A stretch of DNA of 64,000 nt, from the NCBI RefSeq assembly GCF_000526235.1, contig NZ_JAFR01000007.1, positions 124,001 through 188,000 of the forward strand, written 5' to 3'. Shown here in pieces: positions 49,865 to 55,303 of the stretch. The position numbers and the translations under genes are program-made. Every line of letters begins with the position of its first letter. Position 1 is the first letter of the stretch. Below the pieces are notes generated by a model. That model had not been told where the DNA came from, did no database searches, and worked only from the letters and a program-made list of their open reading frames with translations. Origin of the DNA: Acholeplasma granularum ATCC 19168. Lineage in GTDB: Bacteria; Bacillota_I; Bacilli_A; Acholeplasmatales; Acholeplasmataceae.

Positions 49865-50542
49865 TTATTCACTAATTTTTTCTATTAAACTTCTATCATC
49901 ATTTATTGTAGCATTAACACGGTTAGAAACCTTATGATAATGCATTTTATCCGGTTCATAAGGTATAAGTATTTTTTCTAATATTTTTCTGTCTTTGATG
50001 TTTGTATTTAACCATATTTTTTCAGTTTCTTTATTTAAGATAACCGGCATTCTATCATGTATATTTTCCATTAAATTATTACTATGAGTAGTAATAATAG
50101 CAACTGTATGTAGCTTTTTTCCGTCTTCTAATTTATATGTACTCCAGATTGCTGCCATTGGAAAAAGTAATTGATCCGTTAAGATTCTATACGGTTGTTT
50201 TTGATTGTTTTGTTTTTGCCATTCATAAAAACTATCTGCCAAAACCACGCATCTTTGATTAATCACACTCACTTTAAAGGCGTTATTATCAAAAATAGTT
50301 TCGGCTTTTGCATTAATAATTTCTATCTTTTTATGATTTTTTGAATATGGTGGTATAAATCCCCATTTAAGTTCACCAACTCGGTAATTTATGCCATCAC
50401 TAATAACTGAAATAACGTTATTGGATGGTGCAACATTAAATCTAGGTATATTAAATGATTTTGAGTTTAAAATATCATATCTCTGACTTAAAAATTGATT
50501 CAATTGATCATTATTAAGTGTTATTGTAAATCGTCCACACAT
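49865..50542 (-). CDS. SRAP domain protein (YedK/HMCES-like, abasic-site DNA crosslinking)
   Basis: A 225-residue SRAP protein. The catalytic Cys is residue 2 (MCGRFTIT), INAKAETIFDN gives the active-site Asn and Glu region, CVVLADSFYEWQKQ and the His in IHDRMPVIL complete the signature. Such proteins bind single-stranded DNA with an abasic site and form a reversible thiazolidine crosslink that protects the lesion. Starts with ATG that must be removed to expose Cys2. Neighbours are the AbiEii-like gene and a helicase, giving a DNA-maintenance flavour to the block. Confidence 0.92.
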   Translation of the reverse strand: MCGRFTITLNNDQLNQFLSQRYDILNSKSFNIPRFNVAPSNNVISVISDGINYRVGELKWGFIPPYSKNHKKIEIINAKAETIFDNNAFKVSVINQRCVVLADSFYEWQKQNNQKQPYRILTDQLLFPMAAIWSTYKLEDGKKLHTVAIITTHSNNLMENIHDRMPVILNKETEKIWLNTNIKDRKILEKILIPYEPDKMHYHKVSNRVNATINDDRSLIEKISE

Positions 50543-50574: not shown

Positions 50575-50599
50575 AACAAAAAATCCTCTATTTAGAGGA
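50575..50599 (-). terminator. Terminator of the DUF2188 gene
   Basis: Stem TCCTCT/AGAGGA (50584-50589 with 50594-50599), loop ATTT, then T6 on the minus strand. The TAG stop overlaps the stem. Confidence 0.78.
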
Positions 50600-51181
50600 C
50601 TTGTTGCTGTAATCTTGTTTTCTAATTGAACCATCTTTTTTATGTATGACAACAGATGTATTATTTGAATCTGCTAAATCTTGAGCATACTTTATTGCTT
50701 CAACTTGTGTTTTAAAGTACTTAATCGTTTTTTTAGAACCTTCTTTTCTGACTCGCCATTGACCACTGAATTCAGAATTTTCATCTTTGTTTAAAGATAC
50801 ATGATATTTTAGTACTTTAGCTGGTTTAGGTTTATCTATTTTAGAATCTTCTTTTGTACTTAGATTATCATCAATATTTTTAGTATTATCTTTATTAGTA
50901 ACTGTATTTGAATTTTTTTCTACTGTTACTTCAGGGTCTTTTACTTGTTCAATAACTGTTGCTTCTTCATTACTTTGAACAACAGGTTTCGATGTTGGCT
51001 TTGTATCATCTTCATCAATTGACTTCTTATCAACTTTAACCTCTTTATAACTAACATTTTGTTTCTTTTTCTTTGGAACCAGTATCAAAATAAGTATAAA
51101 GATTAACAACAAGATGATTATAGCAGTTACATATTCTAATAAGCCCCAACTGTTTATGTCAAATCCGTCTTTAAATGGCAT
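50588..51181 (-). CDS. Membrane-anchored DUF2188 protein
   Basis: A 197-residue protein in three parts: one transmembrane helix (about residues 13-33), a low-complexity charged middle rich in Lys, Asp, Thr and Val (residues 35-125), and a C-terminal DUF2188 domain with GQWRVRKEGSKKTIKYFKT and SVVIHKKDGSIRKQDYS. The Lys run after the helix suggests the soluble part faces the cytoplasm. DUF2188 has no known biochemical role. Own promoter (51218-51246) and terminator, so it is monocistronic. Confidence 0.78.
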   Translation of the reverse strand: MPFKDGFDINSWGLLEYVTAIIILLLIFILILILVPKKKKQNVSYKEVKVDKKSIDEDDTKPTSKPVVQSNEEATVIEQVKDPEVTVEKNSNTVTNKDNTKNIDDNLSTKEDSKIDKPKPAKVLKYHVSLNKDENSEFSGQWRVRKEGSKKTIKYFKTQVEAIKYAQDLADSNNTSVVIHKKDGSIRKQDYSNKSSK

Positions 51182-51302: not shown

Positions 51303-51584
51303 CTATATTTGAGTATAGAAAAAATATAATAATAAAAGATGTCCAATAAAGGTAATCCAATTTACCAAGACAAAATACCAATGTTTTGTTTTATGTCTAG
51401 CTATATAAAGTCCCATTAATCCACCTATTGAACCTAAAAAAACAGACAATAAAAGTAAATCTTTTTCTTTAATACGCCATTTATTCTTTTTTGCAGCATC
51501 CTTATCATATAAATATATTACATATGTAATTAAGGAAATAAAAATCCAAACAATTACATAGATATATAGGTATAACGGGTTCAT
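51303..51584 (-). CDS. DUF1294 family membrane protein
   Basis: A 93-residue membrane protein with three hydrophobic helices. The DUF1294 core is present: YLYDKDAAKKNKWRIKEKDL, then LLSVFLGSIGGLMGLYIARHKTK. Function unknown. The ATG overlaps the stop of the large helicase gene by 4 bases (ATGA), so translation is coupled to it; this is the only clue to a joint role. Confidence 0.85.
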   Translation of the reverse strand: MNPLYLYIYVIVWIFISLITYVIYLYDKDAAKKNKWRIKEKDLLLLSVFLGSIGGLMGLYIARHKTKHWYFVLVNWITFIGHLLLLYFFYTQI

Positions 51585-54500
51585 AATATACTCTTTTCTA
51601 ATTTATTTTTTAATAATTCTTTTATATTTTTCAGCTCTTTATTTGGATCAGTATACCAATTAGATTCTAAAAGTCTATAGGTATTCCAATTTCTTGATTG
51701 AAGATATTTTTCATAATGAAGTAAATCTCTTCTAGCATATAAATGTTCTTTACTAAACTCACATAGTATTCCAAGAAGATAATCATCAGTATTTTTATTC
51801 TTGATAGCAAGATTAATTTTATCATTACCAATACCTATATTTAAGTCTACAAGATAACCTAATTTTTCAATTCTTTTTTGCAAATCTAAAATCATTTCGT
51901 TATTTGACTTGACTTGTAGATTATCGTCATTTTGATGAAGGTTAGATAATACTGCTTTAGTTAGTACATCATTATTTGTAGAAACATAGTAACAATATCT
52001 CATAAAATCTTTTAATAGTTTAGGCCCTTTTGACTGTAAGTCCTCTACCTTAAATTCCTCTGGGTATAAACTTGATACGAAGTAAATCTTCTTTTTTGCA
52101 CGTGTAATCGCAACATTTAAGCGGTTTTGTCCACCTTCTTGGTTTAGCCATCCAAATCGGCGCATGACCTGTCCTTGTTCGTTTTTAGCATATCCCATAG
52201 AAAATATTATAATATCTCTTTCATCACCTTGTACGTTTTCAATATTTTTTATAAATAATGATTTATCTTCACCATCATCTTTTCTAAACATTTCTTTTTC
52301 AAAATGCTTTTGATAAATACCTTTTTTAAATAATACCTGATCGACTTGATTTTCAATCATATCTCGATGTGCACTATTAAATGTAATTACACCTATTGAT
52401 TCATTATTTTCTCTAGTTTTAAATATTTTCTTTAGTAATTCAACAACTGCTTTAGCTTCTTCTTTATTTGATCTATTTTCAAAGGATGCATTTTTTACAT
52501 ATACATATTCAATTGGTGGCGTAACCGACTTTTCTTGGTTTGGAGATATAATTAGTTTTCCATCATAAAATGCATGATTTGAAAAAGCAATCAACTCTTC
52601 ATATTTTGATCTATAGTGATAGTTTAATAGTGTCTCTTTATATCGATATCTAGCTAAATCAAGTAAACTCTTAGCATCCAAAGATACATCCTTTAATATT
52701 TCATCTTCATAAAACTCATTTGAATCATCAAGTCTACCACTACCTAAGCTAGAAGGTCTTAATTGTTTAGGATCTCCTGCAATAACTACCTTTTTAGCTC
52801 TATAAATAGAAGGAATTCCTTTTTCAACATACATTTGACTTGCCTCATCAAATATAACCAAGTCAAACATGCCTGATTCTAAAGGTAATATGGTTGATAC
52901 TACCTCAGGTGTCATCATCCATAACCTAATATGTTTACTCATTTCAACATTAAATGTTTCAATAAATGACTTAATACTTGGCTTACTATCTTGTTCAAAT
53001 ATACGTTTAATATCCATAATACGTTTTGTATTATTCAAATTTAGTGCATGTTTATATAATGCCATTTCAAAAGATTCAATTGTAATGTTCATTTTAATAT
53101 TCATTAAATCTTTAATAGATTCTAATTTAGTTTGATAATTATCAAATATATACAAATATTTTTGATGACTTGCTTTAAATTCTTCTAAGTATCCTGAATA
53201 GAAACCATCAAATATGTATTTTCTGTATTTATATATATCAGTAATATCTTTTAGTTGATTATTAGTATTTAACATTTTCAAAAATGTTTTATGAGCTGGT
53301 CTTAAATTTTGATATATTGTTTTATATTTATTTAATGAAGTGATGTTGTCATAAATATAATGATGTAAATCTTTATTTTTAAACATTAGGTTTAAATAAT
53401 TTTTACGTATTTTTTTCTTTTGACTTAAGAAACTCATACTATCTATATATTCATTAACAAATTTATTTCTTATTTTTCTTTGTTTGAAATATGTTTTCTT
53501 TTCATAGATGTCTATTATATTTAAATAGTCATTATGTAATTGTTCAAATATTATTTTTTGACTTCTTGTGATTTTAGTTTCTAGCATATGCATTATTTTA
53601 TAATTTCTAAAGTAGTAATCAAAATCTAACATACGCTTTAAGTGTAAATCAGTATCAAATGTCTTTTCTAGTGCATCTACAATTTGAAAATTAATTTTTT
53701 TATAATTTTCATTAAATATTTTATGTATATCAGATGGTGTAAGATGATTTAATATGTCTTTATCTTTTATATATCTTTTATATAACTGAAAAACCGGAAT
53801 ACCTTCAATAGTTTCATCATATAGCAATTTTAATGATTGATCCATGTCATTTAATAATCGCTTAATTTCTAGTTCATTAGAATAAATGTCATTATTCATT
53901 GTTCTAACTGGAGCAACAGGATCTAAAAATTTATTTAATTTATCATAAAAATCTTGTTTATTTTCAGCATCATCAATAAACATAGCATATCTATTTGCGG
54001 TTTTAAGTCTAGAATATATGACATCAAGTGCAACCTTTTTTTCCGAAACAACTAATACATTTTCGCCTTTTAAAATTGAGGTTGATATAAGTGATGTAAT
54101 AGTTTGACTTTTTCCTGTTCCAGGAGGTCCCCAAATAACTATTTTCTTTTCCGTATTGAGTAGATCTATAACTTTTTCTTGGGAATAGTTTAGATCGTTA
54201 ATATATGAGATATTTTCTTCATCAATCGGTGATTTTGTAACTTCTATTAATTCAGTTTTAGCAGATTTAAAAAGGTTTGTTTCATCAATGAGTCCTTCTA
54301 AAAGTTCATTATATGTTTTTGATTGTAGGATTTTTTCCATATCCTTTTGAATACTTGAAGAAAATACTTGAAATCTAGATAATGTAATATAAGGCTTTAT
54401 AATAAATCCTAAGTGTTTACGTTTAAGAAAATCATCTTTTAATTCGTTTAAAAATGGAATAAATTTATTTTCAAATTGCTTATTTATGTTTAGTCCATGT

Positions 54501-55303
54501 TTTTCATAAAAAGGAATAATTACTTCTGTTAAAACATTCAAACTAAATTCAGTAATTTGAGGCATAGTTGCATCAATTGATGATTTTTCCATTTTTGATG
54601 TAAGCAATAATAGATCACGGTTGAGTATGATATCTTTATCTTGATCTTTTTTTATTGTAAATGTTCTAAGTGTTCTTTCTAATTTTACTGGAAAATATAA
54701 AAGTGGTGCTTTGATTGGAAATTTGTCTTTGGAAAACACACCTTCAATAAATGGATAGGCAATATATAAGTTATATGATCCAGTGTCTTTGAAGGTTTTA
54801 TTTACCTCTCTGTAGAGTTTAGTTATATGACTTTCAAAACTTTGTTCATTATATACTAATCTAAGGTTTTTAACTCGGTTATTTGTTAAATAATCTACAA
54901 GTTCATTTTGATTCGTTAAATGGGTTAAATCAAAACTGTGATTTTGATTAATCTTACCTAAATATAAATTAACATTTGATTTTGACATATCAGTTAATCT
55001 ATCTTTATAATGATGTAAGACTTTTGTAGCAGATTTTGATACTTTTACTTGTTTAGAATTTAAATTTGTGTAATTCACAATAACATTTAAAAAACGCTGT
55101 GCATGCATCCTTAAAAACTCAGGTCCTAAACCTGAATATGCATTAAAATCTTCTACTTTGTTTGGTTTAGAATTCGACATTTCAACAAGTGCTTTATCAG
55201 TACATACATCTATTTTTTCACCTGTTTGAAAAAAATGATCTTCCCGAATAATATTTCTTAAATTGTAAAGTAACTCTAATAGTTCATTTTTAGCAGACAT
55301 CAT
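51581..55303 (-). CDS. Large SF1 helicase with HRDC, DUF4011-like and nuclease-like domains
   Basis: A 1240-residue protein. N-terminal HRDC-like domain (IDVCTDKALVEMSNSKPNKV to LGPEFLRMHAQRFL), then a DUF4011-like part (YKDRLTDMSKSNVNLYLGKI), Walker A VIWGPPGTGKSQTI near residue 388, a 400-residue helical insertion, motif II VIFDEASQMY near 814, GDPKQLRPSS, and NRLNVAITRAKK near 1064. The last 110 residues resemble the Vsr/REase-like domain of this helicase group, but the family rID reads KIN and IECDG reads ILCEF, so nuclease activity is doubtful. The start is ATG 55303 (or 55300) after GAAGGG; upstream codons code a leader-like hydrophobic run. Related proteins are predicted anti-phage or DNA-repair factors; the role here is unproven. 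Confidence 0.85.
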   Translation of the reverse strand: MMSAKNELLELLYNLRNIIREDHFFQTGEKIDVCTDKALVEMSNSKPNKVEDFNAYSGLGPEFLRMHAQRFLNVIVNYTNLNSKQVKVSKSATKVLHHYKDRLTDMSKSNVNLYLGKINQNHSFDLTHLTNQNELVDYLTNNRVKNLRLVYNEQSFESHITKLYREVNKTFKDTGSYNLYIAYPFIEGVFSKDKFPIKAPLLYFPVKLERTLRTFTIKKDQDKDIILNRDLLLLTSKMEKSSIDATMPQITEFSLNVLTEVIIPFYEKHGLNINKQFENKFIPFLNELKDDFLKRKHLGFIIKPYITLSRFQVFSSSIQKDMEKILQSKTYNELLEGLIDETNLFKSAKTELIEVTKSPIDEENISYINDLNYSQEKVIDLLNTEKKIVIWGPPGTGKSQTITSLISTSILKGENVLVVSEKKVALDVIYSRLKTANRYAMFIDDAENKQDFYDKLNKFLDPVAPVRTMNNDIYSNELEIKRLLNDMDQSLKLLYDETIEGIPVFQLYKRYIKDKDILNHLTPSDIHKIFNENYKKINFQIVDALEKTFDTDLHLKRMLDFDYYFRNYKIMHMLETKITRSQKIIFEQLHNDYLNIIDIYEKKTYFKQRKIRNKFVNEYIDSMSFLSQKKKIRKNYLNLMFKNKDLHHYIYDNITSLNKYKTIYQNLRPAHKTFLKMLNTNNQLKDITDIYKYRKYIFDGFYSGYLEEFKASHQKYLYIFDNYQTKLESIKDLMNIKMNITIESFEMALYKHALNLNNTKRIMDIKRIFEQDSKPSIKSFIETFNVEMSKHIRLWMMTPEVVSTILPLESGMFDLVIFDEASQMYVEKGIPSIYRAKKVVIAGDPKQLRPSSLGSGRLDDSNEFYEDEILKDVSLDAKSLLDLARYRYKETLLNYHYRSKYEELIAFSNHAFYDGKLIISPNQEKSVTPPIEYVYVKNASFENRSNKEEAKAVVELLKKIFKTRENNESIGVITFNSAHRDMIENQVDQVLFKKGIYQKHFEKEMFRKDDGEDKSLFIKNIENVQGDERDIIIFSMGYAKNEQGQVMRRFGWLNQEGGQNRLNVAITRAKKKIYFVSSLYPEEFKVEDLQSKGPKLLKDFMRYCYYVSTNNDVLTKAVLSNLHQNDDNLQVKSNNEMILDLQKRIEKLGYLVDLNIGIGNDKINLAIKNKNTDDYLLGILCEFSKEHLYARRDLLHYEKYLQSRNWNTYRLLESNWYTDPNKELKNIKELLKNKLEKSIL

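What the first reader, a model, noticed from the sequence alone, without database searches (positions are those of the whole stretch)
51581..55303. Four-part helicase with HRDC and degraded nuclease-like tail
The order HRDC, DUF4011-like, SF1 helicase with a very large insertion, then a Vsr/REase-like tail recalls single-protein helicase-nuclease systems predicted to act against phages. In the tail the conserved Asp appears as Asn (KIN) and the IECDG-type site as ILCEF, so it may have become a non-cutting repair or silencing factor. It is coupled by ATGA overlap to a DUF1294 membrane protein, an odd partner that could localise it.
Basis: partly seen in the sequence, partly recalled or inferred. 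Interest (0 to 1): 0.65.

Follow-up and report, generated by a model that had tools for sequence, protein, structure and literature searches.

The report
Helicase with a disarmed nuclease tail
An Acholeplasma gene encodes a large DNA helicase related to anti-phage helicase-nucleases; its nuclease-like tail keeps the fold but has lost its cutting residues across a whole clade of relatives, so it probably acts by binding and moving along DNA rather than cutting it.

Summary
Window 51581-55303(-) encodes a 1240-aa HRDC / DUF4011 / SF1 helicase / Vsr-like (MTES_1575) protein; each part is over its Pfam cut-off. The tail is predicted to have the Vsr-type fold, but its catalytic positions are gone. 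This is clade-wide: the active-site Glu is absent in 38 of 38 compact relatives, and the conserved Gly and His motif (IECDG..YH) is missing. The tail is still under strong purifying selection (dN/dS 0.05-0.08 in four clade pairs). A sister protein with the same four parts, and Klebsiella Hhe, keep an intact site. The active site has eroded independently in several other branches. The DUF1294 link (ATGA overlap) is real, but close only within the genus; elsewhere the genes are unlinked or DUF1294 is absent, so a partnership is not supported. The gene lies among glycogen-metabolism genes, not in a defence island. It is present in all 8 genus genomes examined, yet its tree strongly rejects the rpoB topology, so it has moved between orders. 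Best reading: a non-cutting, translocating DNA-interference or genome-surveillance helicase of the Hhe / PDC-S37 kind. The anatomy is well supported; the function is inferred.

The parts
51581..55303 (-). HRDC-DUF4011-SF1 helicase-pseudo-REase protein, 1240 aa
55064..55300 (-). HRDC domain, residues ~2-80
   Evidence: Pfam; RecQ HRDC by profile and by fold
54611..55066 (-). DUF4011 domain, residues 80-231
   Evidence: Pfam 48.2 bits
53969..54211 (-). Helicase N-terminal lobe, residues 365-445, Walker A GPPGTGKS at 392-399
   Evidence: Pfam AAA_11; 80% mean identity among 26 orthologs
52934..53968 (-). Large insertion, residues 446-790, the least conserved part (44%)
52064..52921 (-). Helicase motifs II-VI, residues 795-1080 (DEAS, GDPKQL, QGDE, TRAK)
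   Evidence: Pfam AAA_12; 75% mean identity
51608..51895 (-). Vsr/MTES_1575-like tail, residues 1137-1232, catalytic positions lost (I1138, N1164, L1180, E1182, F1183)
   Evidence: Pfam; AlphaFold and VIA-align Z 8.9-10.2 to Vsr and I-Bth0305I; active-site columns
51303..51584 (-). DUF1294 small membrane protein, ATGA-overlapping neighbour; genus-level synteny only, not considered part of the system

Best explanation
The gene encodes a working SF1B-type (Upf1/IGHMBP2-like) helicase or translocase that loads on nucleic acid with its N-terminal HRDC domain and keeps a Vsr-type C-terminal domain as a non-cutting DNA-binding or clamp module. I think it acts on foreign or abnormal DNA (phage, plasmid, stalled or branched DNA) by translocating on it and remodelling it, blocking its replication or expression without cleavage. 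It belongs to the wider DUF4011-helicase-Vsr kind (Hhe, PDC-S37) as a compact, HRDC-bearing, nuclease-dead branch. Shown: domain content, predicted folds, loss of catalytic residues across the clade, purifying selection on the dead tail, transfer between lineages, absence of a fixed partner. Inferred: DNA as substrate, clamp role of the tail, interference with foreign DNA.
For: Helicase motifs are 75-80% conserved. The tail has lost the Glu (0 of 38), the Gly (0 of 38) and the YHSS segment (0 of 38), with Asp kept in 22 of 38, while G1157, G1159, R1191 and H1196 are invariant in the 26 orthologs tested. Tail dN/dS is 0.06, 0.06, 0.05 and 0.08 in four clade pairs (in the fourth, L013/L026, one row lacks the N-terminus). 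The sister L105 has the same four domains with an intact site (MTES_1575 125.5 bits vs 48.2 here), and Klebsiella Hhe is intact. PADLOC PDC-S37 and Hhe match. The tree rejects the rpoB topology (AU 1e-58), and helicase identity to another order (59%) exceeds that to a same-genus species (52%). Relatives lie on plasmids.
Against: No defence-island context: 112 neighbours of 20 relatives are mostly metabolic and transport genes, and the window copy sits within a glycogen cluster. It is present in 8 of 8 genus genomes with mostly conserved synteny, which also fits housekeeping. No phage challenge data exist. Loss of catalysis is inferred from residues; Vsr itself differs from MTES_1575 in its active site (own knowledge), so residual activity is not strictly excluded.
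Confidence: 0.45

Rival explanations
1. A genome-maintenance helicase: it processes stalled forks or recombination intermediates, standing in for RecQ with its HRDC domain, and has no specific role against phages.
For: Present in 8 of 8 genus genomes, mostly in one syntenic place among metabolic genes. No RecQ over cut-off in the 28 genomes tested. Within the genus its divergence (68%) is ordinary for the locus (41-89%).
Against: RecQ is equally missing where this helicase is missing, so it does not track the loss. Patchy outside the genus, transferred between orders, and broken by in-frame stops in G024. Nearest characterised relatives are anti-phage.
Confidence: 0.33
2. An active helicase-nuclease: the tail still cuts, using a different set of residues from the MTES_1575 canon.
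For: Fold retained, purifying selection, invariant R1191 and H1196.
Against: In this protein the helix Glu, Asp, second Glu, Gly and His positions are all lost. H1196 also occurs in sister L105, whose canonical site is intact, so it is not a replacement.
Confidence: 0.12
3. A two-gene system with the DUF1294 membrane protein, which tethers the helicase to the membrane.
For: ATGA overlap and adjacency in 4 of 8 genus genomes.
Against: Separated in the other four genus genomes (up to 178 kb); absent from 7 of the helicase genomes searched and present in many genomes without the helicase.
Confidence: 0.04
4. Decaying remnant: a former defence gene whose tail is on the way to being lost.
For: Active site lost; G024 copy broken.
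Against: Full-length in many species across several families of the phylum; dN/dS well below 1 in nearly every domain, tail included.
Confidence: 0.03

Closest known systems
PDC-S37 (PADLOC phage-defence candidate)
   Same: Best profile match, E 7e-138.
   Different: A candidate only; the profile is 1550 positions long and the best stretch covers only the helicase C-lobe and tail. Here the gene is not in a defence island.
Hhe (DUF4011-helicase-Vsr anti-phage protein; named Gao Hhe in PMC11291487)
   Same: DUF4011, SF1 helicase and MTES_1575 in the same order.
   Different: Hhe has 1911 aa, no HRDC hit and an intact IDLA/IECDG..YH site; this protein scores 356 bits against a 2000-bit cut-off.
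ProA (NCBIfam NF058533)
   Same: 471-bit match, best stretch over the C-terminal part.
   Different: Far below the 1500-bit cut-off.
Druantia I/II YprA helicases with predicted inactivated Vsr tails (PMC12458937)
   Same: Helicase of a defence system with a dead Vsr tail: same design principle.
   Different: YprA family helicase, multi-gene systems; here an SF1B helicase alone with HRDC and DUF4011.
L105 (G267, same class, other family)
   Same: Same four domains, about 1240 aa, 38% identical.
   Different: Tail with an intact catalytic motif.

Membership tests
Hhe (NCBIfam NF042953) | Score at or above curated cut-off of 2000 bits | tested here: not met
   356.4 bits
Hhe (NCBIfam NF042953) | DUF4011 + SF1 helicase + MTES_1575/Vsr domain order | tested here: met
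Hhe (NCBIfam NF042953) | Intact Vsr-type catalytic motif, as in Klebsiella Hhe | tested here: not met
Hhe (NCBIfam NF042953) | Protection against phage | not testable with these tools
   needs a phage challenge
ProA (NCBIfam NF058533) | Score at or above curated cut-off of 1500 bits | tested here: not met
   471.3 bits
PDC-S37 (PADLOC) | Best match to the family profile | tested here: met
   E 7.3e-138, 459.5 bits; no cut-off given
PDC-S37 (PADLOC) | Coverage of most of the profile | tested here: inconclusive
   three stretches; best covers 919-1342 of 1550
PDC-S37 (PADLOC) | Location near other defence genes | tested here: not met
   neighbours of 20 relatives mostly metabolic or transport
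Vsr-type PD-(D/E)xK nuclease | Fold | tested here: met
   VIA-align Z 8.9 to 1cw0/1vsr and 10.2 to 3r3p, tail model pLDDT 75
Vsr-type PD-(D/E)xK nuclease | Catalytic residues (MTES_1575 canon as seen in intact relatives) | tested here: not met
   0 of 38 clade members keep Glu, Gly or the YH segment; Asp is Asn here
HRDC domain | Profile and fold of RecQ HRDC | tested here: met

The most novel reading that the evidence does not exclude
A widespread Mycoplasmatota branch of single-gene immunity that has given up DNA cleavage and controls invading DNA purely by helicase translocation and tight binding through a pseudo-nuclease clamp, the same disarming having happened several times independently in the family.
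Probability: 0.3. Interest if true: 0.72.

Novelty: new variant of a known kind. Interest (0 to 1): 0.45.

Why it matters
Helicase-nuclease defence proteins are usually explained by their nuclease. Here is a large clade of cell-wall-less bacteria in which the nuclease site was lost once at the base and lost separately in sister branches, while the domain stayed under selection. With an intact sister of the same four-part architecture (L105) for comparison, whether such helicases can act without cutting becomes directly testable.

Tried and rejected
DUF1294 partnership: rejected by distribution. A hidden nuclease gene next to the dead-tail helicase: no recurrent one among 112 neighbours; an Endonuclease I family turned up in 3 of 112 only. 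A RecQ-UvrD fusion beside the helicase in three genomes is not a general partner. Viral contigs: no relative found by the pattern scan, which reaches close relatives only. Phage records: one relative covering the query in a faecal 'Bacteriophage sp.' contig plus weak partial hits. A sequence-profile search of the tail in the PDB gave nothing useful, so the fold rests on the model. DUF4011 found no fold match beyond the HRDC part. Papers: none on PDC-S37, none describing DUF4011 function.

Full report
What is there. The minus-strand gene at 51581-55303 encodes 1240 residues from ATG 55303. Pfam finds HRDC, DUF4011, the two AAA_11/AAA_12 helicase parts and the REase_MTES_1575 tail, all over their curated cut-offs, HRDC only just. 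HRDC is independently supported by profile against RecQ HRDC structures and by fold. All helicase motifs read intact: GPPGTGKS 392, DEAS 819, GDPKQL 843, QGDE 1025, TRAK 1067. A 345-residue insertion separates the Walker A lobe from motif II and is the least conserved part (44% mean identity), against 80% and 75% for the two helicase parts. The genus is Acholeplasma: the 68% ortholog in G002 lies on the same contig as an A. laidlawii record.

The tail. An AlphaFold model of residues 1084-1240 from 13 sequences has pLDDT 75. VIA-align places it on I-Bth0305I (Z 10.2, 95 residues, 2.8 A), Hjc (9.0) and Vsr (1cw0 and 1vsr, Z 8.9, 96-100 residues), so the Vsr-type fold is well supported although Foldseek alone gave only weak E-values. 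In relatives with an intact site the motifs read FE, IDLA, GIECDG and YHSS. In the window protein these are MI, INLA, GILCEF and no histidine segment. Among 38 compact relatives the second Glu is never present (Ile 25, Leu 10, Val 3), the Gly never, the YH segment never; the Asp survives in 22 and the helix Glu in 3. A tree of about 80 C-terminal regions puts the loss of Glu at the base of this clade, with Asp lost later several times. Separate erosion is seen in family f12 (Asp to Asn or His, Glu kept), genus g20 (Asp to Ala in three members), the long-form f3 proteins (Glu to Met) and three f8 proteins from TGA-reading mollicutes (Glu to Ile). The intact state is kept by L105, which has the same four domains and 38% identity, by several other proteins of the phylum and by Klebsiella Hhe. 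Despite this the tail is constrained: dN/dS of 0.06, 0.06, 0.05 and 0.08 in four clade pairs, and G1157, G1159, R1191 and H1196 invariant in 26 orthologs. In a pair of the f12 sister branch the value is higher, 0.19.

Distribution and descent. All eight genus genomes carry a full-length ortholog, and it recurs across several families of the class and phylum. The helicase tree rejects the rpoB topology (AU 1e-58, log-likelihood difference 334). G000 is 59% identical to G111 from another order (rpoB 60%) but only 52% to G006 of its own genus (rpoB 80%), and over all pairs helicase and rpoB identity hardly correlate (Spearman 0.14). Transfer between lineages is therefore well supported. Within the genus the divergence is ordinary for the locus and the place is mostly shared, which points to vertical inheritance there. 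The copy in G024 has in-frame stops, so the gene is dispensable at least there.

Surroundings. The window copy lies between glgC/glgA and glgP/glgB. Scanning 112 neighbours of 20 relatives gives ABC transporters, acetyltransferases, redox enzymes and the like, and only scattered generic PADLOC matches; the PDC-S37 and Hhe hits there are most likely the second half of the broken G024 helicase, which was among the neighbours scanned. DUF1294 overlaps the helicase by ATGA here, is adjacent in G002, G003 and G005, one gene away in G004 and G006, 4.7 kb away in G007, 178 kb away in G001, and elsewhere unlinked or missing. I regard it as a syntenic neighbour.

How it probably works. The protein is best read as an SF1B translocase with an HRDC loading domain and a non-cutting Vsr-type grip. 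Its closest families are anti-phage (PDC-S37, Hhe, ProA), but it falls far below the NCBIfam cut-offs for Hhe and ProA, and it lacks the intact nuclease that Hhe has. It is therefore filed as a variant that may work like them in recognition and translocation, not as a member. A published precedent for helicase-borne inactivated Vsr domains in defence is Druantia types I and II (PMC12458937), and inactivated nucleases kept for nucleic-acid binding are proposed in CoCoNuTs (PMC11090510). The main rival is a repair role; RecQ over cut-off is missing from all 28 genomes tested whether or not they carry this helicase, so that test does not decide it.

Limits. Loss of catalysis is inferred from sequence. 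The tail model is of moderate confidence and the superposition is by an automatic aligner without a residue-by-residue check. dN/dS values come from a simple counting method on few pairs. Genomes are one per species, so strain-level patchiness was not tested.

Noticed in passing
L049:346-5136, L050:2546-7339, L036:1329-6092: A ~1,600-aa fusion of a RecQ/DpdF-like helicase and a UvrD-like helicase lies 1-3 genes upstream of the DUF4011 helicase in three genomes; found in 11 of 43 genomes at least in part, mostly unlinked.
   Followed up: partly
L149:5480-11458: A Spiroplasma citri plasmid carries a DUF4011 helicase split over two ORFs, followed by an unknown protein and an NgoFVII-type nuclease gene.
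   Followed up: partly
L016 (G024): Ortholog interrupted by an in-frame stop after about 819 codons, with a further break near the end.
   Followed up: partly
G010:C1:990753-991313, G003:C1:430937-431440: Small ORFs (323-351 aa) with two HRDC-like stretches in genomes without a RecQ over cut-off.
   Followed up: no
window 50588-51181: Protein with a predicted N-terminal hydrophobic stretch and a DUF2188 domain in the same syntenic block, fast-evolving (41-46% within the genus).
   Followed up: no
window 49865-50542: SRAP (HMCES/YedK-type) DNA-damage protein two genes downstream of DUF1294; found in 4 of the 8 genus loci.
   Followed up: no
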